A DNA stretch of 64,000 nt. Origin: Nitrososphaerota archaeon. GTDB lineage: Archaea > Thermoproteota > Nitrososphaeria > Nitrososphaerales > UBA183. The stretch spans positions 1 through 64,000 of the forward strand of contig JAFMAW010000003.1 of the NCBI GenBank assembly GCA_029784795.1. The letters are read 5' to 3'. Shown in pieces: positions 5,208-26,453 of this stretch; the stretch's first letter is position 1; each line of letters opens with the position of its first letter. Below the pieces are notes generated by a model that made no database searches, was not told the origin of the DNA, and was given only the letters and a program-made list of their open reading frames with translations. Both the position numbers and the translations under genes were made by a program.

Positions 5208-5305
5208 GCCGGGTTGGCAGAGTGGTTATTGCGCGGGCCTTGAGACAGCGGCAAGCAAGCCCGTGACCATCAACGGTCGCGTAGGTCCGAATCCTACACC
5301 CGGCG
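5208..5305 (+). tRNA. tRNA-Ser(UGA) with a 13-nt intron
   Basis: The cloverleaf folds by eye. Acceptor GCCGGGT (5208-5214) pairs with ACCCGGC (5298-5304) and G73 is at 5305. The D arm is GCAG/TTGC, the anticodon stem CGGGC (5234-5238) pairs with GCCCG (5259-5263), a long variable arm has stem GACC/GGTC, and the T arm is GTAGG-TCCGAAT-CCTAC. The loop reads CTTGAG then A after removing the intron at 5245-5257, giving anticodon TGA at 5241-5243. The long variable arm and G73 fit archaeal tRNA-Ser. CC follows the discriminator but a full CCA is not encoded. Confidence 0.93.
5245..5257 (+). other. Archaeal tRNA intron (37/38) in a bulge-helix-bulge
   Basis: The 13-nt insert ACAGCGGCAAGCA lies between positions 37 and 38. 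Exon CTTG (5239-5242) pairs with intron CAAG (5252-5255), forming a 4-bp helix flanked by 3-nt bulges AGA and CAA. This is the substrate shape of archaeal splicing endonuclease. Confidence 0.85.
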
Positions 5306-5493
5306 CCTATCTCTTTGGCCTTCCCGCGCACGGCGTCGAGGAGCCTCTTCTCTTCTCCTTCCAGGGCGGCCTTCTGAGCGACTACGTCATGGGAGAAGAC
5401 ACCAGCTGCGCCTGCTTGACAGGGTCCTGGTTCTGTCTGACTTTCTTCTTGTGATCTCTCTGGCCGACGTCGCGGGCGACTTGGGCCGGCCGC

Positions 5494-6390
5494 CTAGGCG
5501 AACCCGTTCTGCCTGACTATCCCCGCCAGCGCAGCGATCATCTCGCTGCTGCCGTTGGGGGACCTGCACCTGACGAGCTCGGCGCCCCTCTTCTCCGCCC
5601 ACTCCCGGCACTCGATGTCGAGGTCGTAGAGGATCTCGAGGTGGTCCGAGACGAACCCGATGGGGGCCGAGATGAACCGCCTCTTCCCCTTTTCATAGAG
5701 AGCCTGGAGGTGGTCCAGTATGTCGGGGCCGAGCCACGGCTCGCCTGTCTTGCTCTGGCTCTGGAACGCGAAGCTCCAGTCGCTCCAGGCCAGCTTCTCG
5801 GCGACCAGCCTGGACGTCGCCAGCAGCTGGTCTCTGTAGGGGTCGCCCTCCCTGATTGTCCGCTCGGGGAGGCTGTGCGCAGAGAAGACCAGCGACGCGT
5901 CGTCTCCGGCGGTCCTGGCCGCCTCCTTCACCCTCCCCGCCCACATGGAGATCAGGCCGGGGTTGTCGTACCACGACTCCACGAACGTCACGTCGAGCTT
6001 CCTCGCCAGGGAGGCTTTGGCCTCGTCCACCGCCTTAGCGTACCCGACCGTGCTCATCTTCGAATAATGGGGCGCGAGCACGATGCAGAGCAGCTCGGTG
6101 ACCCCTTCTGAGCTCGCCCTGCGGACCACGTCCGCGACGAACGGTGGCGAATGCTTCATCCCCGCGTACACCCTGGGCCCCTCTGGCCCGAGCGCCCGCT
6201 CCAGTCCCGCAGCCTGCTTCTCGGTCGTCTCCAGGAGAGGGGACTTCCCCCCTATCGCCTTGTACCTGGCCAGGAGGTCGTCCATCTGCTCCTTGGACGG
6301 ACTCCTCCCTCTTCTGATGTGCGTGTAGTATGCCTCGACCTCGTCCAAGGATCTGGGCCCTCCGTAGGCCATGACCAGTATCCCCTTCAT
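5494..6390 (-). CDS. hemH: Ferrochelatase, probably coproporphyrin ferrochelatase
   Basis: A 298-residue class II chelatase that inserts ferrous iron into a porphyrin. The N-terminus KGILVMAYGGPRSLDEVEAY, the catalytic histidine in VFSAHSLPERT and the metal-site glutamate in GFVSDHLEILYDLDIEC are all present. The presence of a HemQ-like gene in the same operon and absence of protoporphyrin-forming enzymes suggest coproporphyrin III as substrate (CpfC role, inference). The ATG at 6390 lies one base after the hemE stop, so it is the last gene of the heme operon. The frame is open further upstream within hemE, but homology begins at this ATG. Confidence 0.92.
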   Translation of the reverse strand: MKGILVMAYGGPRSLDEVEAYYTHIRRGRSPSKEQMDDLLARYKAIGGKSPLLETTEKQAAGLERALGPEGPRVYAGMKHSPPFVADVVRRASSEGVTELLCIVLAPHYSKMSTVGYAKAVDEAKASLARKLDVTFVESWYDNPGLISMWAGRVKEAARTAGDDASLVFSAHSLPERTIREGDPYRDQLLATSRLVAEKLAWSDWSFAFQSQSKTGEPWLGPDILDHLQALYEKGKRRFISAPIGFVSDHLEILYDLDIECREWAEKRGAELVRCRSPNGSSEMIAALAGIVRQNGFA

Positions 6391-6391
6391 C

Positions 6392-7417
6392 TCAGGCCCC
6401 TCCTTTCCATCCCTGGACCATCTGCACCACCCTTCTGAGGTTTTCGGGGGGCGTGTCACGCAGGACGCCGTGCCCGAGGTTGAATATGTGCCCCCGCCTC
6501 CCGGATGCCTTCCTCATGATCCCTGCGACCGCGTCCTCCATCGCCCCTCCGCCGGTCGCCGCCAGGACAGGGTCCAAGTTCCCCTGCACCCCCTTGTCCT
6601 TGCCAGCGCGGTCCCACACGCTGTCTACGGGGACCCTCCAGTCCACACTGATGACCTCGGCCCCGGTCGCCGCGAACTCCTCCACGAGGGCCGAAGAGTT
6701 AGCGCAGAAGTGGATCGTCGGGACCGACCCGGCCACCCCGCCGAAGACCGCCGAGGTGTAGGGCCTGACGTACCTGCGGTAGTCTTCGGGGGAGAGGCAG
6801 CCCACCCAGCTGTCGAACACCTGGACCGCGTCCACCCCGCTCCTGACCTGGGCCCCGAGGTACGCCGCCACGAGCCTGGTGAGCTTCGACATCAGGAGGT
6901 CCCATGCCTCCGGGTCGGAGTACATCATCTTCTTGGTCTTCTGAAACTCCCTGCTCGGACCTCCCTCGACCAGGTAGCTCGCCAGGGTGAAGGGGGCCCC
7001 GGAGAACCCCACGAGGGGGGTCCCGGCCAGCTTCTCCACGGCCAGGGCTATCGTCTCGAGGACGTACCCGGCATGCGCGTCGGGGTCGAAGTCTGCCAGC
7101 GCCTCCACGTCCTCCCTCCCGGCGATCGGCCGCTCTATGATCGGCCCCACGTTCTCCTCGATCCTGAACTTGACGCCGACCCCTTCCAAGGGGAGCATTA
7201 TGTCGGCGAAGACCACGGCCGCGTCCACCCCGAGCTCCCTCACAGGGTCGACTGTCACGTCCGAAGCGAGGCGGGGGTCCTTGGCTATCTCCAGCATCCC
7301 CTTCTGGGACCTGAGCTTCCGGTAGCTGGGGAGGTACCTCCCTGCCTGCCTCATGAACCAGACCGGCGTGTGGTCCACCTGCTTCCTCCTGCATGCGTCC
7401 ACGAAAGTGCTCCGCAT
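6392..7417 (-). CDS. hemE: Uroporphyrinogen decarboxylase
   Basis: A 341-residue UroD, decarboxylating uroporphyrinogen III to coproporphyrinogen III in the cytoplasm. It has the signature PVWFMRQAGRYLPSYRKLR (about residues 18-36), the conserved aspartate region VVFADIMLPLEGVGV, and the C-terminal FNLGHGVLRDTPPENL. Length is normal. It begins at 7417, next to the hemL stop at 7418. Its presence shows that uroporphyrinogen is directed toward heme through coproporphyrinogen; the archaeal siroheme (Ahb) route would not need HemE. Confidence 0.96.
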   Translation of the reverse strand: MRSTFVDACRRKQVDHTPVWFMRQAGRYLPSYRKLRSQKGMLEIAKDPRLASDVTVDPVRELGVDAAVVFADIMLPLEGVGVKFRIEENVGPIIERPIAGREDVEALADFDPDAHAGYVLETIALAVEKLAGTPLVGFSGAPFTLASYLVEGGPSREFQKTKKMMYSDPEAWDLLMSKLTRLVAAYLGAQVRSGVDAVQVFDSWVGCLSPEDYRRYVRPYTSAVFGGVAGSVPTIHFCANSSALVEEFAATGAEVISVDWRVPVDSVWDRAGKDKGVQGNLDPVLAATGGGAMEDAVAGIMRKASGRRGHIFNLGHGVLRDTPPENLRRVVQMVQGWKGGA

Positions 7418-8713
7418 TCACTTCTTCACCGCTCTGAACGCCTTCCCTGCGGCGCTGACCGTCCTTTCTACGTCCGCGTCCGAGTGAGCCAGCGAGACGA
7501 ACGCCGTCTCGAAGGCCGACGGAGGGAGATAGACCCCGGAGCCGAGCATCTCCCAGAAGTACCTGCCGTAGGCGCCGGTGTCAGTCTTGCTGGCGGTGGT
7601 GAAGTCCACGACCGGCCCCTCGCAAAAGAACTCGCCGAGCATCGACCCCATCCTGTTCGTCGTCAGCGCTACCCCTGCTTTCTCTGCGCCGGACTCGATC
7701 CCTTCCTGGAGGGCCGCCGACGCCTCCTCCAGCCTCCGATAGCCTCCCTTCGTGAGGAGCTCCAGGGCGCGCAGCCCCGCGGCCATGGCGACGGGGTTGC
7801 CTGAAAGGGTCCCTGCCTGGTACACCGGGCCCTCGGGCGCGACCTCGGCCATGACTTCGCCCCTGCCGCCGTAGGCCCCCACCGGGAAGCCTCCGCCGAT
7901 GACCTTCCCAAGGGTGGTGAGGTCCGGCTCGACCCCCAGCAGTCCCTGGGCCCCTCCGGGCCCGACCCTGAACCCTGTGATTACCTCGTCGAAGAGGAGG
8001 AGGGCGCCGCTGTCCGTGCATGCCTTCCGCAGCGCGGGGAGGAAGCCGTCCGCCGGGAGGACGACGCCCATGTTGCCGCCGACGGGTTCGACTATGGCCG
8101 CGGCTATCTTGTCTCCCTCTTTCCTGAACTCCGATTCGACGGCTTCGATGTCGTTGAAGGGGAGGGTCACGGTGTCGCCCACGGAGCCCGCGGTCACCCC
8201 CGCAGAGACGGGGATGTCCAGGGTGGCCATCCCGGAGCCTGCCTTGGTGAGGAACGGGTCTGCGTGCCCGTGGTAGCATCCTTCGAACTTCACCAGGATG
8301 CTCCTCCCGGTGTGTCCCCTGGCTACGCGGAGGGCCGACATGGTGGCTTCGGTCCCGGAGTTCACGAAGCGGACCTTCTCGATCGACGGCATGGACCTTC
8401 GGACCCTTTCCGCGAGGCGCACCTCTGTCTCCGTGGGCGCCCCGAAGCTGGTCCCCGAAGACATGGCGGCGCGGGCGGACGCCGACACGGCGGGGTTCGC
8501 GTGGCCGTGGATCAGCGCCCCCCAGGAGCAGACGTAGTCGACGTACCTGTTGCCGTCCGCGTCCCACATGCTGGAGCCCTTCCCTCTGCGGATGAACTTC
8601 GGCGTCCCGCCCACCGACTTGAACGCCCTGACAGGGCTCGACACGCCTCCGACCATGACCTTCGAAGCCCTCTCGTAGAGGGCCGCCGATTTCCTGTCCT
8701 TCACTGGCACCAC
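7418..8713 (-). CDS. hemL: Glutamate-1-semialdehyde 2,1-aminomutase
   Basis: A 431-residue PLP-dependent aminomutase making 5-aminolevulinate. The N-terminus ASKVMVGGVSSPVRAFK, the cofactor-binding LLLFDEVITGFRVGPGGAQ and the PLP-lysine motif LTTLGKVIGGGFPVGAYGG are intact. No ATG is available: two in-frame GTG codons occur at 8713 and 8710. The first overlaps the hemQ stop (TAGTG), so translational coupling is likely; either is possible. It works directly after HemA in the C5 pathway although the two genes are at opposite ends of the early part of the operon. Confidence 0.95.
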   Translation of the reverse strand: MVPVKDRKSAALYERASKVMVGGVSSPVRAFKSVGGTPKFIRRGKGSSMWDADGNRYVDYVCSWGALIHGHANPAVSASARAAMSSGTSFGAPTETEVRLAERVRRSMPSIEKVRFVNSGTEATMSALRVARGHTGRSILVKFEGCYHGHADPFLTKAGSGMATLDIPVSAGVTAGSVGDTVTLPFNDIEAVESEFRKEGDKIAAAIVEPVGGNMGVVLPADGFLPALRKACTDSGALLLFDEVITGFRVGPGGAQGLLGVEPDLTTLGKVIGGGFPVGAYGGRGEVMAEVAPEGPVYQAGTLSGNPVAMAAGLRALELLTKGGYRRLEEASAALQEGIESGAEKAGVALTTNRMGSMLGEFFCEGPVVDFTTASKTDTGAYGRYFWEMLGSGVYLPPSAFETAFVSLAHSDADVERTVSAAGKAFRAVKK

Positions 8714-9435
8714 TACCCCAGGAGCCTGATCATTGTCGCCGGGTCGACCGAGGCGCAGGTGAAGATGGGCGTCTCCCGTTCGGTGTACTTGCTCGCGTCC
8801 GACGACCTCAGCTCTTCGACAAGGTCCAGGAACTCCCCCGGGTCGTCCCCCTCGAACGCGAGGACGAACTCCTGGTCGTCGAGGCCGAAGGAGTAGCCCG
8901 TGTTGATCTTGATCGCAGGGTACTTGTGTCCGATCCTGAAGTGCTCTGCCATTATCCTCTGCCTCTCGGCGAAGGGGACCTTGTACCACTCCCTCTTCTT
9001 CACCAGAGGATAGACGAAGGCGTACTTCGCGTTCCGCCGGGGCTCGTCTTCAGCTCCTTCCTGCCCGGGGTGCCTGTGCGAGCCGAGGTACTTCGACTTC
9101 CTTGTCATTGCGAGGAAGGAGTAGGCGACGTCTAGCCGCCTGCCGAGCCCGGTGGCAAGGAGCTCCGAGGCAAGGTCCTGCACCGAGCCCAGGTCCTGGG
9201 CCACGACCCAGATCATGAAGTCGGCGTCCGCCCTGGTCCCGACCAGGCTGTAGCATCTGAGGTCCAGCGTCTTCGAGTACTTGTCCAGGACAGCGAGGAA
9301 CTCGTCGGCGCCGGCTTTCTTCTCGTCCTCCGCGAGAGACCTCCACTCCCTGACCGCCTTGAAGAAGACGTACCTCATCACCTTCCGCGAACCGGCCTCA
9401 AGTTCTTGATGTGCCGATGCTTCCTGCATCACCAT
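8713..9435 (-). CDS. hemQ: Coproheme decarboxylase-like protein (HemQ/ChdC, chlorite dismutase family)
   Basis: A 240-residue protein of the chlorite dismutase/HemQ fold. The ChdC-like tyrosine region FVYPLVKKREWYKVP and the proximal histidine region MAEHFRIGHKYPAIK, followed by GLDDQEFVLAFE, are visible. In the coproporphyrin pathway this enzyme decarboxylates coproheme to heme b with peroxide. Its position between hemB and hemL makes a heme role far more likely than chlorite detoxification. The start is ATG 9435 (overlapping hemB by 7 bp) or ATG 9429 (TGATG overlap). ChdC assignment is from motif and context, not from alignment. Confidence 0.88.
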   Translation of the reverse strand: MVMQEASAHQELEAGSRKVMRYVFFKAVREWRSLAEDEKKAGADEFLAVLDKYSKTLDLRCYSLVGTRADADFMIWVVAQDLGSVQDLASELLATGLGRRLDVAYSFLAMTRKSKYLGSHRHPGQEGAEDEPRRNAKYAFVYPLVKKREWYKVPFAERQRIMAEHFRIGHKYPAIKINTGYSFGLDDQEFVLAFEGDDPGEFLDLVEELRSSDASKYTERETPIFTCASVDPATMIRLLG

Positions 9436-10424
9436 CCCTCCTTGATCCACCCTGCTGCCTGCTCGGCGAAGTATGTGATGATCAGGTCTGCGCCCGCTCT
9501 CCTGATGCCGGTGAGCACTTCGCGGGCCGCGGATTTCTCGTCCAGCCACCCGTTCAGAGCGGCGGCCTTCAGCATCGAATACTCGCCGCTCACGTTGTAG
9601 GCTGCCAGAGGGACTTTGAACCTTCGTCTCGCCTCAGAGATCACGTCCAGATATGCCAGCGCTGGCTTCACCATCACGATGTCTGCACCTTCCCTGATGT
9701 CCTCCTCCACCTCTCTGAGCGCCTCTCGCCTGTTCCCGGGCTGCATCTGGTACCCGCGCCTGTCCCCGAACGACGGGGCAGAACCGGCCGCGTTCCTGAA
9801 TGGCCCGTAGAAAGCCGAGGCGTGCTTGGCCGAATAGCCCATCACCACGGCGTCGTCAAAGCCGGCCTCATCGAGGGCCCTCCGGATGGCTAGCACCTGT
9901 CCGTCCATCATGGCGCTGGGGGCGACGACGTCCGCCCCAGACCGGGCGTACTCCACGGCTGCCCTGGAGAGGAGGGGGAGGGTCCCGTCGTTGTCGACCT
10001 CCCGGCCGCGCAGCACCCCGCAGTGGCCATGCGAGGTGTACTCGCAGAGGCAGACGTCCGCCATCACAACCAGCTCGGGGAACGACTGTCTGATGGATGA
10101 CATCGCCCTGGGAACGATGCCGTCCCTGGCGTAGGCCCCCGTCCCCTGGTCGTCTTTGTGGCCTGGCACCCCGAAGAGCAGCACGCTCCGGATCCCTGCC
10201 CTGACGAGCCTCTCGAAGTAGGTCGGCAGCCGGTCCACCGAGTACCTCAAGACCCCAGGCATGCCGTCAATCTCTTCGGCCCTACCCTCGCCTTCGACCA
10301 CGAACACGGGGGCAACGAACATGTCCTTGTGGAGCCTCGTCTCGTCGAGCATCCTCCGCATGGGCTCGGTCCTCCTGAGCCTCCTCCCCCTTCGCTCCGG
10401 CCTGACCCTCGGTTCGTCAGACAT
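9429..10424 (-). CDS. hemB: Porphobilinogen synthase (5-aminolevulinate dehydratase)
   Basis: A 331-residue enzyme condensing two 5-aminolevulinates to porphobilinogen. The zinc-type metal site DVCLCEYTSHGHCG, one active-site lysine region MGYSAKHASAFYGPF and the second, MVKPALAYLDVI, are all conserved, as is DVVAPSAMMDGQV. The cysteine-rich loop marks the zinc-dependent form. It overlaps hemD by 8 bp upstream and hemQ by up to 7 bp downstream, indicating coupled translation. Confidence 0.97.
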   Translation of the reverse strand: MSDEPRVRPERRGRRLRRTEPMRRMLDETRLHKDMFVAPVFVVEGEGRAEEIDGMPGVLRYSVDRLPTYFERLVRAGIRSVLLFGVPGHKDDQGTGAYARDGIVPRAMSSIRQSFPELVVMADVCLCEYTSHGHCGVLRGREVDNDGTLPLLSRAAVEYARSGADVVAPSAMMDGQVLAIRRALDEAGFDDAVVMGYSAKHASAFYGPFRNAAGSAPSFGDRRGYQMQPGNRREALREVEEDIREGADIVMVKPALAYLDVISEARRRFKVPLAAYNVSGEYSMLKAAALNGWLDEKSAAREVLTGIRRAGADLIITYFAEQAAGWIKEGW

Positions 10425-11172
10425 GGGTCGCCAGCTCCACTATCTTCGCTGCCAGGGCGTCAATCGTGTGTCGCCCCGGGAACACCACCGACCCGAACCC
10501 TGCACTCCTGGCGGCCGACGCCGTCACGGGCCCGATGCACACAGCCGTCGCCCTCCCTGTGACACTGCCCATCCTGTCGGGACCGAGCCGCGACTCGAAC
10601 CCCCTGACTTCAGAAGGGCTCGCGAACGCAACAAGGTCTGCCCCCTCGACGGCGGCGGGGTCCAGCTCCCCTCCTTCGGGCAGAGTCCGGTATGCCGCCA
10701 CCTCGGAGACCTCGAACCCCCTGTCTTCCAGGGTTTTCGTCAGCGCCTTGTCCCCGATGTCCGCCCTGAACAGGAGGACCCTGTTCCCCCGGCCTAAGGG
10801 GAGCGTCTCGCCCAGCTGAGCGGTGAGGAACCTGTCGGGGACAAAGCTCGCCTCGAGCCCGAAGTCCCTGAGCCCAGCTGCGGTCCTCGGCCCCACAGCG
10901 GCGAACTTCGGGAGGGCCCCTCTCCCGCCAGACTTCCTGAGCCGCTCCCCCAGGACAGCCACGGCCCTCGGTGACGTCAGGACCACCCAGTCGAAGTCCC
11001 CGACCCCGGCTAGCGCCTTGTCCACGGCTGACCAGTCTTCGGGCGCCTCGAACCTGACCGTCTCCACCCCGGCCGCTTCGACCCCTGACGCGGCGAGCAT
11101 GGCCTGCAGCTCTTCGTTCCCCTCCCTGGACCGCGCCACGACCACTCTGTGCACCGCGTGCTGGGAGGTCAA
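10417..11172 (-). CDS. hemD: Uroporphyrinogen-III synthase
   Basis: A 251-residue HemD, cyclising and inverting ring D of hydroxymethylbilane. The family is poorly conserved, but the two-domain alternation is visible, with DWVVLTSPRAVAVLGERL and DLVAFASPSEVRGFESRL repeating the same strand-helix theme, and ATAVCIGPVTASAARSAGF near the end. The likely start is TTG at 11172, overlapping the hemC stop by 3 bp; a GTG at 11154 is an alternative. The longer frame upstream lies inside hemC and is discarded. Confidence 0.9.
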   Translation of the reverse strand: MTSQHAVHRVVVARSREGNEELQAMLAASGVEAAGVETVRFEAPEDWSAVDKALAGVGDFDWVVLTSPRAVAVLGERLRKSGGRGALPKFAAVGPRTAAGLRDFGLEASFVPDRFLTAQLGETLPLGRGNRVLLFRADIGDKALTKTLEDRGFEVSEVAAYRTLPEGGELDPAAVEGADLVAFASPSEVRGFESRLGPDRMGSVTGRATAVCIGPVTASAARSAGFGSVVFPGRHTIDALAAKIVELATHV

Positions 11173-12095
11173 CCTGCAATCCCCTCCATGATCTTCGCCC
11201 CGCCTCTCTCCTTGACCTTCCTTGCCAGCTCCCTCCCCAGGGCCTTCGGGTTCCTTCCGTCCCCTTCGACCTCGGCCCTGGCCGACCTCTTCCCTAGCGG
11301 ATCGGCCACGAGGCCGATGGCGACCATCCTGCCCGGGGCGACCGTAGCGTACGCTCCCAAAGGGACGTCGCAGTCCCCTCCTAGCTCTTCCGAGAACGCC
11401 CTTTCGCACTCGCTGGACGCCCTGGTGTCAGGGTCGTCGATCGCCTCCAGCATCGCCAGGACATCGCTGTCCCCCGCCCTTGCCTCGACAGCCAGTGTCC
11501 CCTGGCAGACCGCGGGGACGACCTCCTCGACGCCGAAGGCCTGGGTTATCCTCGAGCCGAGGCCCAGCCGATGGAGCCCGGCCGCAGCCAGCACCGCGCC
11601 GTCGAGCCCCCGCTCCTCGATTTTCCTCAGCCTGGTGTCGACGTTCCCCCGCAGTTCGACGACTTCGATGTCCCCCCTGAGCGCAAGAAGCTGAGACATC
11701 CTCCTGACGCTCGAGGTCCCTATGCGCGCGCCTTTCCTCAGCCGGCCCAGGGTAGCGCCTGAGGGTGACACCAGCGCGTCCCTGGGGTCGCCCCTCTTCG
11801 GGGTGGCGCCGATGACCAGCCGTTCGTCAGTGAGCAGAGGGAGGTCCTTCATGCTGTGCACCGCGATGTCTATGCGGCCTTCTGCCAGCTCTCTGTCTAT
11901 ATCCCCTGTGAACGCCGTCTTCCCGTCGGTCACGAGCCTCTCGTGGGGGAGGGCGTCCCCAGAGGTCTTCAGCGGCACCATCACCAGCTCGGCCTCTGTC
12001 TTCCCGTGGAGGAGGTCCACCACAAGCCTTGTCTGGGCGAGGGCGAGCGCGCTCCCGCGCGTCCCCACGAGCACCCTATCCCTCACCTGAGTCAC
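11169..12095 (-). CDS. hemC: Porphobilinogen deaminase (hydroxymethylbilane synthase)
   Basis: A 308-residue enzyme that polymerises four porphobilinogens to hydroxymethylbilane. The N-terminal VGTRGSALALAQTRLV, the VHSMKDLPLL loop and the dipyrromethane-cofactor cysteine in GGDCDVPLGAYA are present. The stop overlaps the hemD start and the 5' end overlaps hemA by 20 bp. Confidence 0.97.
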   Translation of the reverse strand: MTQVRDRVLVGTRGSALALAQTRLVVDLLHGKTEAELVMVPLKTSGDALPHERLVTDGKTAFTGDIDRELAEGRIDIAVHSMKDLPLLTDERLVIGATPKRGDPRDALVSPSGATLGRLRKGARIGTSSVRRMSQLLALRGDIEVVELRGNVDTRLRKIEERGLDGAVLAAAGLHRLGLGSRITQAFGVEEVVPAVCQGTLAVEARAGDSDVLAMLEAIDDPDTRASSECERAFSEELGGDCDVPLGAYATVAPGRMVAIGLVADPLGKRSARAEVEGDGRNPKALGRELARKVKERGGAKIMEGIAG

Positions 12096-13359
12096 CCCCG
12101 AACACCGCCCTCAGAAGGCCGAGCTTCTCCTCTTCGGACAGGCCTGGGTGCTTCTTCCGAGCGAACCCGACCGGCCTCGCAATGAGCTTGCTCACGATCC
12201 TGCGGCCCATGGCCTCCACGATCCTCTTGTCCCTGGCGGAGGCCGGTCCCAGCCTGCTGACCGCCCTCCTGAGCTCCTCCTCCCTCACACCCTCGGCCCA
12301 GGAGTAGATGTCTGCCACGGTCGTTGACAGCCGCGTCTGAACCAGCCAAGAGTAGAACTCAGACGCTTCTTTCGATACCGCGACTTCAGCCTCAGCGAGG
12401 CCTGCGGGCGGGCGCCGGGCGGTGGCCATCGCGGCCAGGTCGTCCAGGTCCAACAGCCGCACGTTCGGCAGGCCCCTCACGGCGTCGGAGACGTTCCTCG
12501 GCATCCCCAGATCCACCACGGTCTTCGGCCTGCGTCCTTTCAGGTCTGCGGAGGTGATGATCGGCTTCTTCACCGAAGTGGCGGAGATGAGGACGTCGCA
12601 GCTCTTCGCGAGCCTCTTCACGTCAGCATACCTGACCAGCCTGCACCACTCCAGGCCCGCCGGGGACCTCTTCCTCCTCGAAGCGACGTACAGCCGTGAC
12701 ACATTCCCCTTCAGCCTGCGGGCGGCTAGGCGGATCATCTTTCCCGTCCCGACAAGCATCACGACCTTCCTCTCTGGGTGGACCCTGTCGATGGCCTCCA
12801 TGGCCAGGTCGCTGAGCGAAGCCTCGTCAGACCCGAGCCCATAGGATGACCTCACGCGGTTACCGACCCTGTATGCACGGTCGAACAGCGGGGAAAGGAT
12901 GCCCTTGGCTTCCCCCTTGACCCTCGACTCTACCCCTGCCGCCCTCACCTGAGCCAATATCTGGGGCTCCCCGACTACCACCGACTCGAGCCCCGATGCG
13001 ACCCGGAAGAGGTGCCTGACTGCCTCTTGCCCCTTCAGCTGGTAGAACTCTGACCCGACGCGGTCGTGGCCGGTAAGGCCCCGCAGGTACGACACAAGTC
13101 CTGCCGAAGCTGCGTCTGGCTCCTTCGAGACCAGATAGAGCTCATACCTGTTGCAGGTGGAGAGCAGCGCGGACTCGTCCGCCGCGGCCAGCGTCCTGTC
13201 GAGCCGTCCAGCTTCGACCCTCTTCGCCAGGGCTTCGCGGAAGCTCACCCCGGAGGTCTGGTAGGACGTGCCTACGAGAAGGAGCTGGGGCTGAGTTGAT
13301 CCGCCGTCTGATGGCGGCGCGGTGGGTCCCAAAATACCCTGTTGACCAGCGTTCGGCAA
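12076..13359 (-). CDS. hemA: Glutamyl-tRNA reductase
   Basis: A 427-residue NADPH-dependent reductase converting glutamyl-tRNA to glutamate-1-semialdehyde, the first step of tetrapyrrole synthesis. The catalytic cysteine is in LLSTCNRYELYLVS, substrate binding in SGLESVVVGEPQILAQVR, and the nucleotide-binding domain contains MLVGTGKMIRLAARRL. The start is TTG at 13359, giving about 26 extra residues (MPNAGQQGILGP and on) before the conserved LLLVGTSYQT; an A/T-rich TATA element 32 nt upstream supports it. First gene of the eight-gene heme operon and the likely point of control. Confidence 0.95.
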   Translation of the reverse strand: MPNAGQQGILGPTAPPSDGGSTQPQLLLVGTSYQTSGVSFREALAKRVEAGRLDRTLAAADESALLSTCNRYELYLVSKEPDAASAGLVSYLRGLTGHDRVGSEFYQLKGQEAVRHLFRVASGLESVVVGEPQILAQVRAAGVESRVKGEAKGILSPLFDRAYRVGNRVRSSYGLGSDEASLSDLAMEAIDRVHPERKVVMLVGTGKMIRLAARRLKGNVSRLYVASRRKRSPAGLEWCRLVRYADVKRLAKSCDVLISATSVKKPIITSADLKGRRPKTVVDLGMPRNVSDAVRGLPNVRLLDLDDLAAMATARRPPAGLAEAEVAVSKEASEFYSWLVQTRLSTTVADIYSWAEGVREEELRRAVSRLGPASARDKRIVEAMGRRIVSKLIARPVGFARKKHPGLSEEEKLGLLRAVFGGDSGEG

Positions 13360-13385
13360 GGGAATCTGGGCGGCGGGCTCCCTAA

Positions 13386-13406
13386 TTTTTATTTAACGTT
13401 TGTTAA
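13386..13406 (-). promoter_or_regulatory. Heme operon promoter with inverted repeat
   Basis: On the minus strand TTAAATAAAAA (13386-13396) is centred 32 nt before the hemA TTG and is the most A/T-rich element nearby. It is overlapped on its upstream side by TTAAC-GTTT-GTTAA (13393-13406, plus strand), a perfect 5-bp inverted repeat that could be an operator next to the BRE. Function is inferred from position. Confidence 0.5.
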
Positions 13407-19819: not shown

Positions 19820-21028
19820 ATGCAGCTGAACCGACAGCAGGAGGGGGCTCTAAGGGGCGAGGAAGGAGAGGCGCGGCAGCTCGCAATGGAGATACTCGCG
19901 AAGGTCGGCGATGCCATGGAAGCCGATTCGCTTGTACCCATCTCGTCTGCGCACGTGCTGGCCCACTACAGCAGCCTCCACGAGGCTGGCATCGAAATGC
20001 TCGAGAAGTTCCGGGACGGCGGAGGGAGGTTCGCCGTGAAGACGAGCGTCGACCCGGCCAGCATCGACCCACAGAACTGGAAGAGCTTCGGCGTCCCAGA
20101 GGAGTTCGCCGGAAAGCAGTTCAGGCTCTTCAGGGCGTATGAAGCGCTGGGTGGGACGGGGTGCTGGACCTGCGTCCAGTACCAGACGTGCAACATCCCG
20201 AACGGAGGCGAGATTCTCGCATGGGCGGAGTCGAACGCCGTCGTCTATGCCAATTCGTTGCTCGGGTGCAGGACGAACAAGATCACCTCCGGCCTAGATC
20301 TGGCCTGCGCCCTGACGGGACTCACGCCCAGATATGGCATGCTGCTTGACGAGAACCGTGTCGCCCGGGTGGCCTTCAGGCTCTCCGTGCGCGACCCGTC
20401 CGACCTGGACTACAGGAGCGCCGGGTTCTACATCGGAAGGCACTGCGGCTCGAGAGTGCCCGTCCTCTCCGACCTTCCGAAGTCTTCGACGTTCGACAGC
20501 CTGAAGCACCTGGGTTCGGCTGCGGCCACGGGCGGACCGGTGAACATGATCCACTTCGTCGGCTTCACCCCGGGCTGCGACTCTGTGGCGAAGGCGACGG
20601 GCGGAGAGAAGGTCGAGGTCATCGAAATAGGAAGGAAGGAGATGGAGGAAGTCGAAGGCGAGCTGAACCAGACTGACGAGAAGGCGGACCTTGTGGCTCT
20701 CGGCGTACCGCAACTGTCGCTCGACGAGCTGAAGGTGCTGGCCGGCGCGCTGGCCAGCAGGAAGCTCCGACGCGGGTCGAGCATGTATGTGTACACCTCG
20801 AAGCAGGCCTACGACGAAGCGACAGGGTCTGGGATCAGGAGCGCCATAGAAGCCTCGGGCGCCAGGCTGACCCATTCCACCGATGGGGAAATCTCGCCGC
20901 TGAAGGAGATGGGCTTCAGGACCGTCATGACCAACTCGGCGAAACTGGCGGAGACCATCATGTCGGAGGGGGAGATAAGAATGCGCTACGCCCCGCTCAA
21001 GGACATGATAGCTGAGGCCACGTCATGA
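19820..21028 (+). CDS. Aconitase X large subunit: phosphomevalonate dehydratase large subunit
   Basis: A 402-residue aconitase-X catalytic protein. In archaea the two-subunit form dehydrates (R)-5-phosphomevalonate to trans-anhydromevalonate 5-phosphate in the modified mevalonate pathway. Family features visible are SAHVLAHYSS near the N-terminus, the cysteine cluster GTGCWTCVQYQTCNIPNGG, the iron-sulfur-type NSLLGCRTNKITSG, and SMYVYTSKQAYDEA near the C-terminus. It overlaps the small subunit by 4 bp (ATGA), so the two are translated together. Substrate assignment follows the archaeal family rather than anything unique in the sequence. Confidence 0.92.
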   Translation: MQLNRQQEGALRGEEGEARQLAMEILAKVGDAMEADSLVPISSAHVLAHYSSLHEAGIEMLEKFRDGGGRFAVKTSVDPASIDPQNWKSFGVPEEFAGKQFRLFRAYEALGGTGCWTCVQYQTCNIPNGGEILAWAESNAVVYANSLLGCRTNKITSGLDLACALTGLTPRYGMLLDENRVARVAFRLSVRDPSDLDYRSAGFYIGRHCGSRVPVLSDLPKSSTFDSLKHLGSAAATGGPVNMIHFVGFTPGCDSVAKATGGEKVEVIEIGRKEMEEVEGELNQTDEKADLVALGVPQLSLDELKVLAGALASRKLRRGSSMYVYTSKQAYDEATGSGIRSAIEASGARLTHSTDGEISPLKEMGFRTVMTNSAKLAETIMSEGEIRMRYAPLKDMIAEATS

Positions 21029-21441
21029 CCGAGTCGTACTCCGTCAGGGTGATGACCGGCCGGAAGGCGAGAGGTCTCGCCCTCGTCTCCAAGAAAGCGT
21101 TCACGTTCGCCCATGGAGTCGACCCGCGGAATGGCAACGTGACCGACCTGCATAGCGACCTGCTCGGGAAGAACGTGAAAGGGTCGGTCCTCGTCTACCC
21201 GTACGGCAAAGGATCCACGACGGCTTCCGCCTGGTTCCTGGAGACCGTCAGGCTCGGCAACGCACCTGCGGCCGTGGTCACATCCTCCGTCGACCCGGCA
21301 GCGGTGATAGGAAGCGTGGTGGCCAAGGTCCTCTACGGCGTTGAGATCCCCGTCATGCTATGGTCCGACGCCCCCAGCCGCATGAGGTCGGGAGACGCGG
21401 TGGAAGTGGATGCAGGGACGGGAACGATCAGGCTTCGGTAG
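21025..21441 (+). CDS. Aconitase X swivel subunit (DUF126): phosphomevalonate dehydratase small subunit
   Basis: A 138-residue swivel-domain protein. The signature GKNVKGSVLVYPYGKGSTTA, with the active-site serine region, and WSDAPSRMRSGDAVEVDA are typical of the family. It caps the active site of the large subunit encoded immediately upstream with a 4-bp overlap. It converges with an aldehyde dehydrogenase gene 7 bp away. Confidence 0.93.
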   Translation: MTESYSVRVMTGRKARGLALVSKKAFTFAHGVDPRNGNVTDLHSDLLGKNVKGSVLVYPYGKGSTTASAWFLETVRLGNAPAAVVTSSVDPAAVIGSVVAKVLYGVEIPVMLWSDAPSRMRSGDAVEVDAGTGTIRLR

Positions 21442-21448
21442 CTGAGGC

Positions 21449-22942
21449 CTAACCCCTGGGGAGGCCGAAGTACCACGGCCTGTCCCCATAGGAGTAGTCT
21501 ATGAAGACCGTCTTCTTCTCCGTGAAGTGCTCGAGAGCCTCCTCGCCCAGCTCCCTCCCGAAGCCAGAATCCTTGGCCCCGCCGAAAGGCGCGCCCACCT
21601 CCGGCCCCACCGTGCCCTGGTTGACGAAGGTCATCCCTGCGTCGATCCCGTCTATCGCCTTGAAGACGTTCTTGATGTCCTTGGTGTATATGGCTGAGGA
21701 GAGGCCGTAGCGCGTGTCGTTCGCGACCTCTATGGCCTCGTCGATGTCGCTCACAGTCATTATGGCGGTCACCGGCGCGAATATTTCGTCCCGCGCTATC
21801 TTCATGTCGTTGCGGGCCGAGCCGAAGACGGTGGGCTTGACGAAGAAGCCTTTCCGCCGCTCCTCGTCCTCGTAGGTACCGCCTCCCGCGAGGACGACTG
21901 CTCCCTCACTCTCTCCCGCTTTGATGTAGTCCAGGGCGTTCTCCTGCTGGGACCGGCTGATTACCGGCCCGACGTCGACGTCCTCCCTTAAGCCGCTGCC
22001 TACCACCAGCTTCGAAGCCTGCTCGGCGAAGAGCCGCGAGAACTTGTCGGCCACCTGCTCTTCCACTATGATTCTTGACGCGGCCGTGCACTTCTGACCT
22101 GCGCTGCTGAAGGCGGCGTAGAGCGCGGCGCGCGCGGCTACTTCCAACTCCGCGTCCTTGGCCACGATCAGGGCGTTCTTTCCGCCCAGCTCCATCACCT
22201 GCCTCCGGAACAGCGGGGCGTTGACTTCTGCTATGTGCCGCCCTGTTGCACTCTCGCCGGTGAAGACAGTCATGTTGATCCCGCCGTTCTTTATCAGGGC
22301 TTCGCCCACCTCCCCCCCTCCGCCGGTGACCATGTTCAAGACCCCCTTCGGGAGGCCGGCCTTCTCAAACACCCTCACCAGCTCGGCAGAGATGACCGCA
22401 CTGTTGGACGAGGGTTTGAAGACCACTGTGTTCCCCGTCATCAGTGCCGGGGCCAGCCCCCACATGCCCAGCGACGCGGGGTCGTTCCAGGGCGTTATCA
22501 CACCCACCACGCCTACCGGCCTCCTGACGACCATCGTGAACTTCTCGGGCTGCTCGCTGTCTACCACGTTGGAGTACATTCTCCTGGCCATCCCGGAGAA
22601 GTATATGGCGGCGGTCGCGGCTGCACCCACCTCCCTCCTCGCCTCTCTGATCGGCTTCCCGACGTTTTTCACGTCGATTCTGGCAATCGCTTCTAGCTGT
22701 TCCCTGACCAGGAGGCCCGCCCGCAGTACGTAGTCGCCACGTTGGCTGGCGGGGATGTTCCTCCAAGACCTCTGCGCAGCGATGGCGGCGTCCACGGCGG
22801 CCTTGACATCCTCTTCGTTCCCCTTCGGGACCCTTTCAAACTCCTCGCCGGTGGCGGGGTCGATCGCTGCGAACTCCCGGCCCGAGGATGAACCGACCCA
22901 CTGTCCGTCTATGTACATCTTCATGGGTATCTTGCTCTCCAC
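21449..22942 (-). CDS. Aldehyde dehydrogenase, NAD(P)-dependent
   Basis: A 497-residue ALDH superfamily member oxidising an aldehyde to a carboxylate. The general-base glutamate is in VMELGGKNALIV and the nucleophile cysteine in SSAGQKCTAASRIIVEE; the cofactor loop TGESATGRHIAEV and the C-terminal GGAKDSGFGRELGEEAL are normal. The start is GTG at 22942, with an A/T-rich element (TGTTTATTTG) about 23 nt upstream. The substrate is unknown. It lies downstream of an anion-symporter gene in the same direction, next to a second ALDH, suggesting a catabolic role. Confidence 0.93.
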   Translation of the reverse strand: MESKIPMKMYIDGQWVGSSSGREFAAIDPATGEEFERVPKGNEEDVKAAVDAAIAAQRSWRNIPASQRGDYVLRAGLLVREQLEAIARIDVKNVGKPIREARREVGAAATAAIYFSGMARRMYSNVVDSEQPEKFTMVVRRPVGVVGVITPWNDPASLGMWGLAPALMTGNTVVFKPSSNSAVISAELVRVFEKAGLPKGVLNMVTGGGGEVGEALIKNGGINMTVFTGESATGRHIAEVNAPLFRRQVMELGGKNALIVAKDAELEVAARAALYAAFSSAGQKCTAASRIIVEEQVADKFSRLFAEQASKLVVGSGLREDVDVGPVISRSQQENALDYIKAGESEGAVVLAGGGTYEDEERRKGFFVKPTVFGSARNDMKIARDEIFAPVTAIMTVSDIDEAIEVANDTRYGLSSAIYTKDIKNVFKAIDGIDAGMTFVNQGTVGPEVGAPFGGAKDSGFGRELGEEALEHFTEKKTVFIDYSYGDRPWYFGLPRG

Positions 22943-23042
22943 CTAAGGCACGGCAGGCCGCAAATAAACAAATCCCCTCATGCGCATCGGATTCGCGTCA
23001 GCGCTTTCCAAGTCGATATCCCGGCAGCCGGACTTTGGGTGT

Positions 23043-24437
23043 TCAGTACGCGGAGTGTGACTTGGCGGCGGCGAGCATCGTATTGCCCTTTTCGATCGCC
23101 TTGTTCATGGACTTCTCTGTGATGAAGACCAGGTATGCCGCGAGGAACAGGATCATGAAGAACACAGTGCTCGTTATGGCTGCGGGGAAGCCGTACATGA
23201 TTGCCAGGCCTGCGATTATGAGCGAAGTGAACGCGCCCATTATGTTCAGCACACCGTTATAGAACCCGTAGACCGTGGCGCTCGTTTCGCCAGGAGAGAT
23301 TGTGAGCGCGTTGGCAGCCCAAGACCCCACAGTGATGTTCATCACTCCGCCTGCCAAGGCGAGGAGAATCGCGGTGGGGATGAAAGCCCCGGCTTTTCCT
23401 GTGAAGTAAGACGTCGTCACGAAAAGAATCATAAGAACCATCGGAACAAGGGCCGCTATCCTCCTCCCATTGGCGCGCCCCATCCTCTTTGATAGCCCGT
23501 CGTTTATGGGACCCGACGCCAAGTAGCCTCCAAGTAGCGACGTATAGACAGCGCCCGAGTAGATGCCGGTGCTCGTGACGTTGTGGAGGAAGGAACTGTA
23601 GAAGTAAGTTGGGACCCATGACAGAATCGCGCCGAGGATGTATGCGAACGAGACGAAGATCAGGAGCTCGCCAAACCCGGCCCTCGTCGTGAAGGCGAGT
23701 TTCAGTGTTATCTTCCACGTGTCCTTGTTGGATATGTTGGTCCCCTTCATGTCCTCGCCCCTGCTGCTCTCGATGTAGTCGAGCTCTTCCTTGTTCACGT
23801 GGGGGTGTAGCCGCGGGGAGTCTCTTACGTAGAAGTACCACACGCCTACAATGAGGAATCCGACGACGCCCCAGAAGACGAAAGTCAACTGCCACCCCCA
23901 GAGGGACACCTGCAACCCGCCGACCACTGCCGCAATGATTGGGCCCACCGCCTGGCCGGAGCCCGCCAGCGTGAACATGGTTGACTCCTCGCCGGAATTG
24001 GACCACGTCCTCGCGTTCCTGCCGTTTATGGGCCAGACCGGTCCCTCGCCTGCGCCCATGAACGCCCTCACTATCGCCATCGAGATGAAGTTGAACGTGG
24101 CGGCTGTGGCGATGGTGAACGCGGACCAAATCGCAAAGAACGTCGTCATCCCTTTCCGTATGCCCAGTTTGTCCACTATCCACCCGCCTGGGAAATTGAA
24201 GAATGCATAGGCCATCGACCAAATGAAGAGTACCAGGGCTATGTCGGTCAAGGCCTTCGCGGGCAACGGACCGGTGCCCGAATACCAACCGAACGTTTGG
24301 GCGAATTTCGGCTCCGCGATCACCCAGATTATCCTGTCGATGTAATTGACCGCGATAGCGGTCATCAGGACGGTGGTTATCACCCATCGTACATGGGACT
24401 TCTGCTTCTGAGCCGGCACCTGTTGCGCAACGGCCAT
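23043..24437 (-). CDS. MFS transporter, anion:cation symporter type
   Basis: A 464-residue transporter with 12 predicted helices. Helix 1 carries the ACS-like VNYIDRIIWVIAEPKF; the loop after helix 2 has FNFPGGWIVDKLGIRKG, and GAGEGPVWPINGRNARTW in helix 4 resembles the sugar-acid transporter group (glucarate, galactonate, hexuronate). The inferred substrate is an organic anion such as an aldonate or uronate. It shares a 60-bp divergent promoter with an aldehyde dehydrogenase gene; the TATA box is 26 nt from its ATG. GVWY and acidic loop residues are in the expected cytoplasmic parts. Confidence 0.88.
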   Translation of the reverse strand: MAVAQQVPAQKQKSHVRWVITTVLMTAIAVNYIDRIIWVIAEPKFAQTFGWYSGTGPLPAKALTDIALVLFIWSMAYAFFNFPGGWIVDKLGIRKGMTTFFAIWSAFTIATAATFNFISMAIVRAFMGAGEGPVWPINGRNARTWSNSGEESTMFTLAGSGQAVGPIIAAVVGGLQVSLWGWQLTFVFWGVVGFLIVGVWYFYVRDSPRLHPHVNKEELDYIESSRGEDMKGTNISNKDTWKITLKLAFTTRAGFGELLIFVSFAYILGAILSWVPTYFYSSFLHNVTSTGIYSGAVYTSLLGGYLASGPINDGLSKRMGRANGRRIAALVPMVLMILFVTTSYFTGKAGAFIPTAILLALAGGVMNITVGSWAANALTISPGETSATVYGFYNGVLNIMGAFTSLIIAGLAIMYGFPAAITSTVFFMILFLAAYLVFITEKSMNKAIEKGNTMLAAAKSHSAY

Positions 24438-24458
24438 CGGCGCACGTGCACTTTGAAT

Positions 24459-24467
24459 CTATTTAAG
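24459..24467. promoter_or_regulatory. Shared bidirectional TATA element
   Basis: CTATTTAAG can be read on both strands (minus: CTTAAATAG). Its centre is 26 nt from the MFS ATG at 24437 and about 34-40 nt from the divergent aldehyde dehydrogenase start. Only 59 bp separate the two genes, so one element probably serves both. Confidence 0.55.
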
Positions 24468-24496
24468 TTAGCACCAGACTCATCATTCGTCGGTTA

Positions 24497-25819: not shown

Positions 25820-26453
25820 GAGCAAGTCTGACAAGACGGGCTTTCACACACGACTCGAGATAACGTGTGACCGTAAATGCGGTCATTGGAGGACGCAGCT
25901 GTCGCACGGGGTGTTCCTTCATCCCATGGCTTGGTCTTCGGCAAGGCATTCTCTTTCCTTGGCGTGCTGGGACTACCTTCGTCCTCGATGGAGGGCGCGG
26001 AGATCACTGGCGAAGGCGCCCAAGAAGCTCGGTGCACCCTCCGATGTGGCGGCAGCCTGCCCGGGGGCGGTCATCTCGACGCGGCCCCAAGGGGATGCCC
26101 AAGCAGTTCGTCGACATCGACGACCTAGCGCGCTTAGTCGCCCAGGCACCACGTTTCTCGGCGCAGGGCCGTTCCCGCCATCCAGGGCCTCGGTTCAGGG
26201 TCGGCCGTCTGCGTCGCCCTCTCGAGGGTTCACAACCTCCTTCTTGCCTTGAAGCTGACGGAAGCGAGGGGCATCGGCAAGGCGGGGGGCTGACATGCAG
26301 GCCCCGCCAAGGTCCACAGGGCCGGGGGACGCGCCTGGGAAAGGTCAGGCTGTCCGGCGCAGGGCGCAGATGCAGGCTCCTCCTTTTCGGCGCTACGTCG
26401 ACAGCCGCACAGCCGCCGAATCAATTTAAGTTTGAGGCACTGGACCCAGGGTT
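25820..26453. other. Gene-free region, possibly decayed
   Basis: No convincing intact gene in 634 bp. Open frames exist but look like GC-rich noise. A perfect inverted repeat TGACCG-TAAATG-CGGTCA is at 25868-25885. One plus-strand stretch near 26097 reads MPKQFVDIDDLARLV, faintly like an epimerase/reductase segment, but no flanking homology was seen. The end holds the TATA box CAATTTAAG (26422-26430) of the next gene, 28 nt before its GTG. Confidence 0.4.

What the first reader, a model, noticed from the sequence alone, without database searches (positions are those of the whole stretch)
5494..13359. Eight-gene heme operon using the coproporphyrin-dependent route in an archaeon
The order hemA-hemC-hemD-hemB-hemQ-hemL-hemE-hemH is one operon with overlaps or gaps of at most a few bases. 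HemE plus HemH plus a HemQ/ChdC-like protein is the Gram-positive-type coproporphyrin pathway (known enzymology), whereas many archaea make heme from siroheme (Ahb). HemQ sitting between hemB and hemL is unusual and indicates it was captured into the operon.
Basis: partly seen in the sequence, partly recalled or inferred. Interest (0 to 1): 0.7.

Follow-up and report, generated by a model that had tools for sequence, protein, structure and literature searches.

The report
Archaeal coproheme operon without its oxidase
A non-ammonia-oxidising relative of the Thaumarchaeota carries, in one tightly packed operon, the genes for making heme by the route usually associated with Gram-positive bacteria, but the usual gene for one step was not found in its nearest sequenced relative, which points to an unknown replacement.

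Summary
The operon is real: hemA-C-D-B-Q-L-E-H, minus strand, 13359-5494, with overlaps or gaps of at most 20 bases. HemQ carries coproheme-decarboxylase residues, not chlorite-dismutase ones; HemH is CpfC-like; HemE keeps its named catalytic residues. AhbA/B was found in 0 of 10 genomes of the two operon-bearing families, and no AhbC, AhbD or HemN in the nearest genome. The coproporphyrin-dependent reading is well supported. The "HemQ was captured" reading is not: 24 of 33 related loci have the full order, and a Gemmatimonadota locus nearly so.

Two genes travel with the system. A TIGR04053 radical-SAM protein sits beside some archaeal and one bacterial hem operon, and in or near the AhbD slot of three Ahb clusters. 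A CopD-like membrane protein beside it is shared with Thermoplasmatota, which include the other archaea reported with hemE+hemH but no known oxidase. They are candidates for oxygen-independent coproheme decarboxylation and coproporphyrinogen oxidation; both assignments are inference.

The parts
12076..13359 (-). hemA, glutamyl-tRNA reductase (427 aa, TTG start as listed; true start may be further in)
   Evidence: TIGR01035 232 bits (cut-off 209.6); GlutR_N, GlutR_dimer
11169..12095 (-). hemC, hydroxymethylbilane synthase
   Evidence: TIGR00212 297 bits
10417..11181 (-). hemD, uroporphyrinogen-III synthase (start uncertain)
   Evidence: PF02602 156 bits; below NCBIfam cut-offs
9429..10424 (-). 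hemB, porphobilinogen synthase
   Evidence: NF006762 475 bits (cut-off 297)
8713..9435 (-). hemQ/chdC, coproheme decarboxylase (240 aa from ATG 9435; a GTG at 9432 is equally possible)
   Evidence: PF06778 196 bits; nearest PDB sequences are coproheme decarboxylases; Y142, W150, H165, H120; fold match (fold alone does not separate ChdC from chlorite dismutase); below NCBIfam cut-offs
7418..8710 (-). hemL, glutamate-1-semialdehyde aminomutase
   Evidence: TIGR00713 581 bits (cut-off 527)
6392..7417 (-). hemE/uroD, uroporphyrinogen decarboxylase
   Evidence: TIGR01464 399 bits; one search aligned to 2inf, with the Asp, Tyr and two Arg named in PMC10427985 identical
5494..6390 (-). hemH/cpfC, coproporphyrin-type ferrochelatase
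   Evidence: TIGR00109 232 bits; best 18 PDB sequences 222-266 bits, mitochondrial ones at most 111; Tyr, His, Glu conserved
13381..13404 (-). AT-rich stretch upstream of hemA, possible TATA-like promoter element (inference only)
   Evidence: sequence; not tested

Best explanation
The operon makes heme b from glutamyl-tRNA by a coproporphyrin-dependent route. HemA-L-B-C-D make uroporphyrinogen III, HemE makes coproporphyrinogen III, HemH inserts iron into coproporphyrin III, and HemQ (ChdC) decarboxylates coproheme to heme b with peroxide. Shown here: gene identity, order, residues, and no Ahb set in the genomes searched. Inferred: the reactions themselves. [quoted passage not shown] It is either non-enzymatic in these probably oxygen-respiring cells or done by an unidentified enzyme; the CopD-like membrane protein is the best candidate found. 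HemE, HemH and HemQ were probably together before the archaeal operon lineages diverged, rather than HemQ being added alone.
For: Families. HemQ: Tyr142, Trp150 and His165 in 30 of 30 archaeal operon HemQs, distal His120 in 29 of 30, and Ile at the column that is Gln in five distant bacterial rows and Ala in two actinobacterial ChdCs. Chlorite dismutases have isoleucine at the ChdC tyrosine and need a distal arginine (PMC7611857, passages). HemH: Tyr12/His182/Glu263 equivalents (PMC10427985, passages) are kept in every row except the Tyr of L026, whose ORF is cut there. HemE: full-length alignment to 2inf. Co-occurrence: HemH is in 9 of 37 class genomes and HemE in the same 9 (8 over cut-off, G147 cut by a contig end; four other genomes have only weak UroD-family hits); HemQ is in all 9. 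AhbA/B 0 of 10 in f1 and f13. AhbD over cut-off 0 of 37. Nearest genome: nine radical-SAM hits, none HemN, AhbC or AhbD over cut-off (six by NCBIfam; three by inspection). HemF 0 of 10. COX1 in 6 of 7 f1 genomes. Gene order 24 of 33.
Against: CgoX, a canonical enzyme of the route, passes its cut-off in only 1 of 9 genomes with HemE+HemH, and CgoN in 0 of 10. In S. aureus CgoX is required for aerobic and anaerobic heme synthesis (PMC6620371, title and abstract), which argues against simple autoxidation. HemQ is below the curated NCBIfam cut-off (143 against 235 bits for NF042928), and its fold model also matches chlorite dismutases closely. The window's own assembly is not held; the nearest genome is 90% complete. 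AhbD's cut-off of 500 bits is strict: only 1 of 14 controls passes. HemG and HemJ were not searched genome-wide.
Confidence: 0.85

Rival explanations
1. The route is the ordinary complete coproporphyrin-dependent pathway and a HemY/CgoX gene exists in this species but was missed (assembly gaps, divergence).
For: Two operon-bearing archaea do have CgoX: L032 (Gagatemarchaeum stordalenia), 307 bits, divergent beside hemA, and G027, 305 bits. The window's own assembly is not held.
Against: No match over cut-off in G097 (one contig, 100% complete), G170 (100%), G005 (99%) or the five other genomes with HemE+HemH; PF01593 in G001 finds only three proteins, one a glutamate-synthase-like protein by NCBIfam and the other two glutamate-synthase-like and dihydrolipoyl-dehydrogenase-like by look. 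In 32 of 33 archaeal loci no hemY match of 200 bits or more lies in the stretch held, while 9 of 11 bacterial hemE loci have one within about 1.5 kb of hemE.
Confidence: 0.1
2. Classical protoporphyrin route: coproporphyrinogen is decarboxylated and oxidised to protoporphyrin IX, HemH is a protoporphyrin ferrochelatase and HemQ does something else.
For: HemE and HemH are also protoporphyrin-route enzymes.
Against: HemF 0 of 10; no HemN among nine radical-SAM hits of the nearest genome; HemY over cut-off in 1 of 9; HemH is the coproporphyrin type with the proximal tyrosine; HemQ lies inside the operon and keeps ChdC residues.
Confidence: 0.04
3. Siroheme (Ahb) route is the real heme pathway and the HemE-HemH-HemQ genes serve something else.
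For: Most archaea with heme genes carry ahb-nir genes (PMC3004389, passages).
Against: AhbA/B 0 of 10 in f1 and f13, yet found in 19 of 37 panel genomes, so the search works; no AhbC/AhbD over cut-off.
Confidence: 0.02
4. HemQ was captured alone into an older archaeal hem operon.
For: The HemQ of the ammonia-oxidiser-type families is a separate clade, so HemQ has moved or diverged within the class.
Against: The position is conserved in 24 of 33 loci; operon HemQs are one side of a branch 93/93; archaeal operon HemE likewise 97 in a quick tree; a Gemmatimonadota locus has A-C-D-B-Q-E-H.
Confidence: 0.1

Closest known systems
Coproporphyrin-dependent heme pathway of Firmicutes and Actinobacteria (UroD-CgoX-CpfC-ChdC)
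   Same: UroD, CpfC and ChdC with conserved catalytic residues; all-in-one gene clusters are known, e.g. Cutibacterium acnes (PMC10427985, passages).
   Different: In an archaeon; no CgoX in the operon, and over cut-off in only 1 of 9 genomes with HemE+HemH; HemQ between hemB and hemL; actinobacterial-type distal histidine but Ile where two actinobacterial ChdCs have Ala and Phe where they have Trp.
hemE/hemH set of Thermoplasma and Picrophilus
   Same: Archaea with hemE and hemH and without recognizable hemF/N/G/Y, the only such among 59 genomes surveyed; route called unclear in 2010 (PMC3004389, passages). A ChdC structure from Thermoplasma acidophilum exists (3DTZ; PMC7611857, passages).
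   Different: Their gene order was not examined here; the eight-gene operon is shown here only for Nitrososphaeria relatives.
Haloferax volcanii PitA (ChdC fused to an ABM-like domain)
   Same: Archaeal ChdC implicated in aerobic heme synthesis.
   Different: H. volcanii lacks uroD, cgoX and cpfC and has ahb genes (PMC5746218, passages); here uroD and cpfC are present and AhbA/B was not found.
Gemmatimonadota hem locus L051
   Same: hemA-C-D-B-Q-E-H order, plus a TIGR04053 gene just beyond hemL.
   Different: Has hemY after hemH and hemL after that; HemQ only 33% identical.

Membership tests
Coproporphyrin-dependent (CPD) pathway | Uroporphyrinogen decarboxylase HemE/UroD | tested here: met
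   TIGR01464 399 bits over cut-off 303
Coproporphyrin-dependent (CPD) pathway | Coproporphyrin-type ferrochelatase CpfC (proximal Tyr, distal His and Glu) | tested here: met
   residues named in PMC10427985. One PDB chain named coproporphyrin III ferrochelatase (28wn) scores only 107 bits, so bit score alone does not define the type
Coproporphyrin-dependent (CPD) pathway | Coproheme decarboxylase ChdC/HemQ | tested here: met
   by sequence, residues and fold; NCBIfam equivalog cut-offs not reached; activity not tested
Coproporphyrin-dependent (CPD) pathway | Coproporphyrinogen oxidase CgoX (HemY) or CgoN | tested here: not met
   TIGR00562 over cut-off in 1 of 9 genomes with HemE+HemH, not in the nearest genome (PF01593); PF07285 0 of 10. 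The window's own assembly is not held
Coproporphyrin-dependent (CPD) pathway | Coproporphyrin III and coproheme as intermediates | not testable with these tools
   needs LC-MS or enzyme assays
Siroheme-dependent (Ahb) pathway | AhbA/B siroheme decarboxylase | tested here: not met
   PF17805 0 of 10 genomes of f1 and f13, nearest genome included
Siroheme-dependent (Ahb) pathway | AhbC and AhbD radical SAM enzymes | tested here: not met
   none over cut-off in G001; TIGR04545 over cut-off 0 of 37 with a strict cut-off; note the TIGR04053 relative, 253 bits to AhbD
Protoporphyrin-dependent pathway | HemF or HemN and a protoporphyrinogen oxidase | tested here: not met
   HemF 0 of 10; HemN not among 9 radical-SAM hits of G001; HemY not in G001; HemG and HemJ not searched genome-wide
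Chlorite dismutase (Cld) | Catalytic distal arginine and isoleucine at the ChdC-tyrosine position | tested here: not met
   Tyr142 in 30 of 30; Ile177 in 30 of 30 at the column taken as the distal Gln/Arg site (that this is the Cld arginine column is inferred from numbering); rule from PMC7611857
AhbD heme b synthase (for the companion TIGR04053 protein, not in the window) | NCBIfam TIGR04545 equivalog cut-off 500 bits | tested here: not met
   every complete or nearly complete TIGR04053 copy scanned scores 253-295 bits to AhbD and passes the TIGR04053 cut-off of 395 (422-505 bits); the truncated L217 copy scores 207 and 389. L130, from another family, is nearer to AhbD (324 bits)
HemJ oxidase (for the CopD-like protein, not in the window) | Match to the HemJ family or fold | tested here: inconclusive

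The most novel reading that the evidence does not exclude
These archaea run a coproporphyrin route with two non-canonical enzymes. The CopD-like four-helix membrane protein replaces CgoX as coproporphyrinogen oxidase, and the TIGR04053 radical-SAM/SPASM protein is an oxygen-independent coproheme decarboxylase working beside the peroxide-dependent HemQ, as its counterpart would in bacteria with TIGR04053. Together they would fill both missing steps: the oxidase missing in Nitrososphaeria and Thermoplasma, and the unknown oxygen-independent partner of ChdC.
Probability: 0.15. Interest if true: 0.85.

Novelty: new variant of a known kind. Interest (0 to 1): 0.6.

Why it matters
A review describes the coproporphyrin route as almost exclusively Gram-positive (PMC10427985, abstract and passages). 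Here it is the genomically supported heme route of a lineage of uncultured archaea. In the 37-genome panel it divides the class Nitrososphaeria into a HemE/HemH/HemQ group and a group with AhbA/B plus HemQ. The near-absence of CgoX and the two companion genes make two open questions directly testable: how coproporphyrinogen is oxidised in archaea that have hemE and hemH but no known oxidase, and what decarboxylates coproheme without oxygen in coproporphyrin-route organisms (named as unknown in PMC10965808, passages).

Tried and rejected
Looked for CgoX with PF01593 and TIGR00562, CgoN with PF07285 and HemF with PF01218: nothing over cut-off in the nearest genome that is a porphyrinogen oxidase. 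Looked for a conserved unknown gene inside the operon: none; flanking genes differ between clades. A 164-184 aa protein follows the second-type HemH in L026, L031 and L033; the copy scanned (L026) has no Pfam or NCBIfam match and it was not pursued.

HemJ as identity of the CopD-like protein: no Pfam hit seen, and the fold search was uninformative for a helical bundle. Against a strict link of that protein to this pathway: genome G190, with no HemQ, HemH or AhbA/B match and only sub-cut-off HemE-family hits, has the same TIGR04053 plus CopD-like pair.

Common ancestry of operon HemQ and the HemQ of the ammonia-oxidiser-type families could neither be shown nor rejected (AU p 0.147). In the first HemQ tree (55 rows) the operon HemQs were not one side of a branch (2 changes, 0% of bootstrap trees); it was redone with 50 rows after dropping five long-branch bacterial rows (L051, L053, L054, L055, L061), giving 93/93. 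Fragmentary bacterial HemQs (L056-L060, L062) and archaeal L050 and L052 were in neither tree. The HemH and HemE trees are quick trees with thin bacterial sampling and decide nothing about donors; the L051 row was left out there as the same genome as L219.

ARAGORN and Rfam (gathering threshold) reported nothing in the window, although a tRNA-like stretch is visible near 5209-5308. Passages found for heme or archaea terms in PMC10740692, PMC8529089, PMC7242693, PMC10833072 and PMC9287336 do not describe this operon.
Full report
Observation. The eight genes hemA-C-D-B-Q-L-E-H lie on the minus strand from 13359 to 5494 with overlaps or gaps of at most 20 bases. HMM scans identify all of them. 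HemD and HemQ are clear by Pfam but below NCBIfam's curated equivalog cut-offs.

Organism. The window's own assembly is not held; the nearest genome, G001, shares 98% of the window's sampled words and is 90% complete. Named relatives are mostly MAGs titled Nitrososphaerota, Thaumarchaeota or archaeon, and one is Candidatus Gagatemarchaeum stordalenia (L032). For its family aerobic respiration has been proposed (PMC10640624, passages). COX1 is present in 6 of 7 genomes of the window's family f1. The 37-genome panel used below was chosen by me from the 200 genomes, so its counts are not random samples.

HemQ is a coproheme decarboxylase by sequence. The best-scoring solved structures are coproheme decarboxylases of Streptomyces coelicolor and Corynebacterium diphtheriae by sequence and by the fold of an AlphaFold2 model (mean pLDDT 75.8, weak in 112-131); chlorite dismutases follow closely in the fold list. 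In 30 of 30 archaeal operon HemQs the residues matching C. diphtheriae Tyr135, Trp143 and His158 are kept (Y142, W150, H165; the mutants Y135A and W183Y named in PDB titles fix the numbering). A distal histidine, typical of actinobacterial enzymes (PMC7611857), is kept in 29 of 30. The Gln/Ala column is Ile and the Trp183 column is Phe in all 30. Chlorite dismutases have isoleucine at the tyrosine position and rely on a distal arginine, so that membership fails.

HemH and HemE. The best 18 PDB sequences for HemH score 222-266 bits (B. subtilis and Listeria types, organisms partly recalled), against at most 111 bits for mitochondrial ones; one chain named coproporphyrin III ferrochelatase (28wn) scores only 107 bits. 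The Tyr, His and Glu named for CpfC are kept. HemE aligns over its length to B. subtilis UroD 2inf, and the named Asp, Tyr and two Arg are identical.

Other heme routes. In the panel HemH occurs in 9 of 37 genomes and HemE in the same nine, eight over cut-off and G147 cut by a contig end; four more genomes have only weak UroD-family hits. The nine are six of seven f1 genomes and all three f13 genomes sampled. HemQ is in all nine and in 154 of 200 class genomes. AhbA/B is found in 0 of 10 f1 and f13 genomes but in 19 of 37 overall, including 15 of 16 f2-f5 genomes. AhbD over cut-off: 0 of 37. In G001 there are nine radical-SAM hits. Three look like MoaA, LipA and Elp3 by inspection. NCBIfam names TIGR04053, TIGR04084 and AmmeMemoRadiSam over cut-off, a contig-cut tetraether synthase below it, and gives two proteins only weak matches. 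None is HemN, AhbC or AhbD over cut-off. HemF: 0 of 10.

The missing oxidase. CgoX (TIGR00562) passes its cut-off in one of the nine genomes with HemE+HemH, G027. The other eight include G097 (one contig, 100% complete), G170 (100%) and G005 (99%). CgoN: 0 of 10. A second archaeal CgoX lies divergently beside hemA in L032. Among 33 archaeal loci that is the only hemY match of 200 bits or more in the stretches held. Of 16 HemQ-bearing bacterial genomes 11 have HemE over cut-off, and 9 of those 11 hemE loci have hemY within about 1.5 kb. Non-enzymatic oxidation typically needs oxygen (PMC10965808), and CgoX is required even aerobically in S. aureus (PMC6620371, abstract), so autoxidation alone is possible but not a comfortable answer.

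Operon history. The nine others are cut by contig or locus ends (L013, L021, L052, probably L038), fragmentary (L050), have the hemH on the other strand (L016), or lack detectable genes (L024, L036, L037). Operon HemQs form one side of a branch at 93/93 once five long-branch bacterial rows are dropped, but not with them; archaeal operon HemEs do so at 97 in a quick tree. A Gemmatimonadota locus has hemA-C-D-B-Q-E-H-hemY-hemL. HemQ's place is thus a property of the block, not a sign of solitary capture. Five loci (L016, L026, L028, L031, L033) have a second, more bacterial-like HemH (quick tree, 99 and 88), so HemH has probably been replaced at least once.

Two companions. (a) A TIGR04053 radical-SAM/SPASM protein, whose next-best family is AhbD (253-295 bits for complete or nearly complete copies), lies before hemA in L018 and L024, directly after hemH in L032, near hemH in L027 and L030, and beside the Gemmatimonadota operon. 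In G011, which has AhbA/B, it stands between AhbA/B and an AhbC-like gene that it overlaps by 4 bases, where AhbD would be expected; in G013 and G009 it lies about 2-3 kb from AhbA/B. By the AhbD profile and tblastn it is in 7 of the 9 HemE+HemH genomes and not at that strength in G097 or G164. I infer an AhbD-like coproheme decarboxylase (about 0.45). No paper in the searched library contains the name TIGR04053.

(b) A CopD-like protein of about 161 residues, four long helices (model pLDDT 91.5) with His12 and Arg44 invariant in 50 of 50 aligned, lies next to TIGR04053 in G001, G147, G170, G200, G005, G021, L027 and L030. It was not found in the stretches of the two CgoX-bearing cases (L032, G027) or of L018 and L024. 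The protein search found 132 relatives. Among the 120 listed, those with an organism name are Nitrososphaerota/Thaumarchaeota, Thermoplasmatota (Thermoplasma volcanium among them) or one uncultured archaeon. Thermoplasma and Picrophilus are the archaea reported to have hemE and hemH without hemF/N/G/Y. This fits a replacement of CgoX (about 0.2). G190, with the pair but without the pathway, speaks against it, and its status in G097 and G164 is untested.

Literature limits. The listed results of the searches (10-20 papers each) showed no title or abstract describing this operon in Nitrososphaeria, nor did the passages opened. The library lacks most subscription papers, and the main 2017 review is not held.

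Verdict. A real, conserved, archaeal coproporphyrin-type heme operon whose canonical oxidase was not found in the nearest genomes; new variant of a known kind, interest 0.6.

Noticed in passing
L201-L203, L205-L211, L213 (unnamed f2-f5 genomes, ammonia-oxidiser type by inference): HemQ lies within about 12 kb of fused AhbA/B in 11 of the 15 such panel genomes that have AhbA/B (coordinates); in G047 and G090 it is far away, in G138 and G116 on another contig. These 11 HemQs keep the ChdC tyrosine and proximal His but have no distal His in the alignment. Their AhbD-profile hits are weak, so they may use siroheme decarboxylase plus ChdC. One paper lists the protein only as chlorite dismutase-like (PMC5817080, passages); another says heme genes of these archaea need more screening (PMC4010524, passages).
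   Followed up: partly
L201-L203, L205-L210 between hemQ and AhbA/B: An aldo-keto-reductase-like gene (cluster 1; named from its sequence look, not scanned) stands between HemQ and AhbA/B in these nine stretches; a possible lead for the missing AhbC step.
   Followed up: no
G176 (same genus as the nearest genome, 96% complete): No match to HemQ, HemE or HemH but COX1 present: unexplained heme source, or an assembly gap.
   Followed up: no
L016, L026, L028, L031, L033: A second, bacterial-like ferrochelatase stands in place of the usual one; in L026, L031 and L033 it is followed by a 164-184 aa protein, and the L026 copy has no Pfam or NCBIfam match.
   Followed up: partly
L132 (G190): TIGR04053 plus CopD-like pair in a genome with no HemQ, HemH or AhbA/B match and only sub-cut-off HemE-family hits.
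   Followed up: partly
window 5209-5308, + strand: tRNA-like stretch (by eye) just downstream of hemH that ARAGORN and Rfam did not report; possibly intron-bearing.
   Followed up: partly
window 19820-27545: Aconitase X family gene near two aldehyde dehydrogenases, an MFS transporter and an enolase-superfamily (MR/MLE) gene: looks like a sugar-acid or hydroxyproline-type catabolic cluster (families; function is recall).
   Followed up: no
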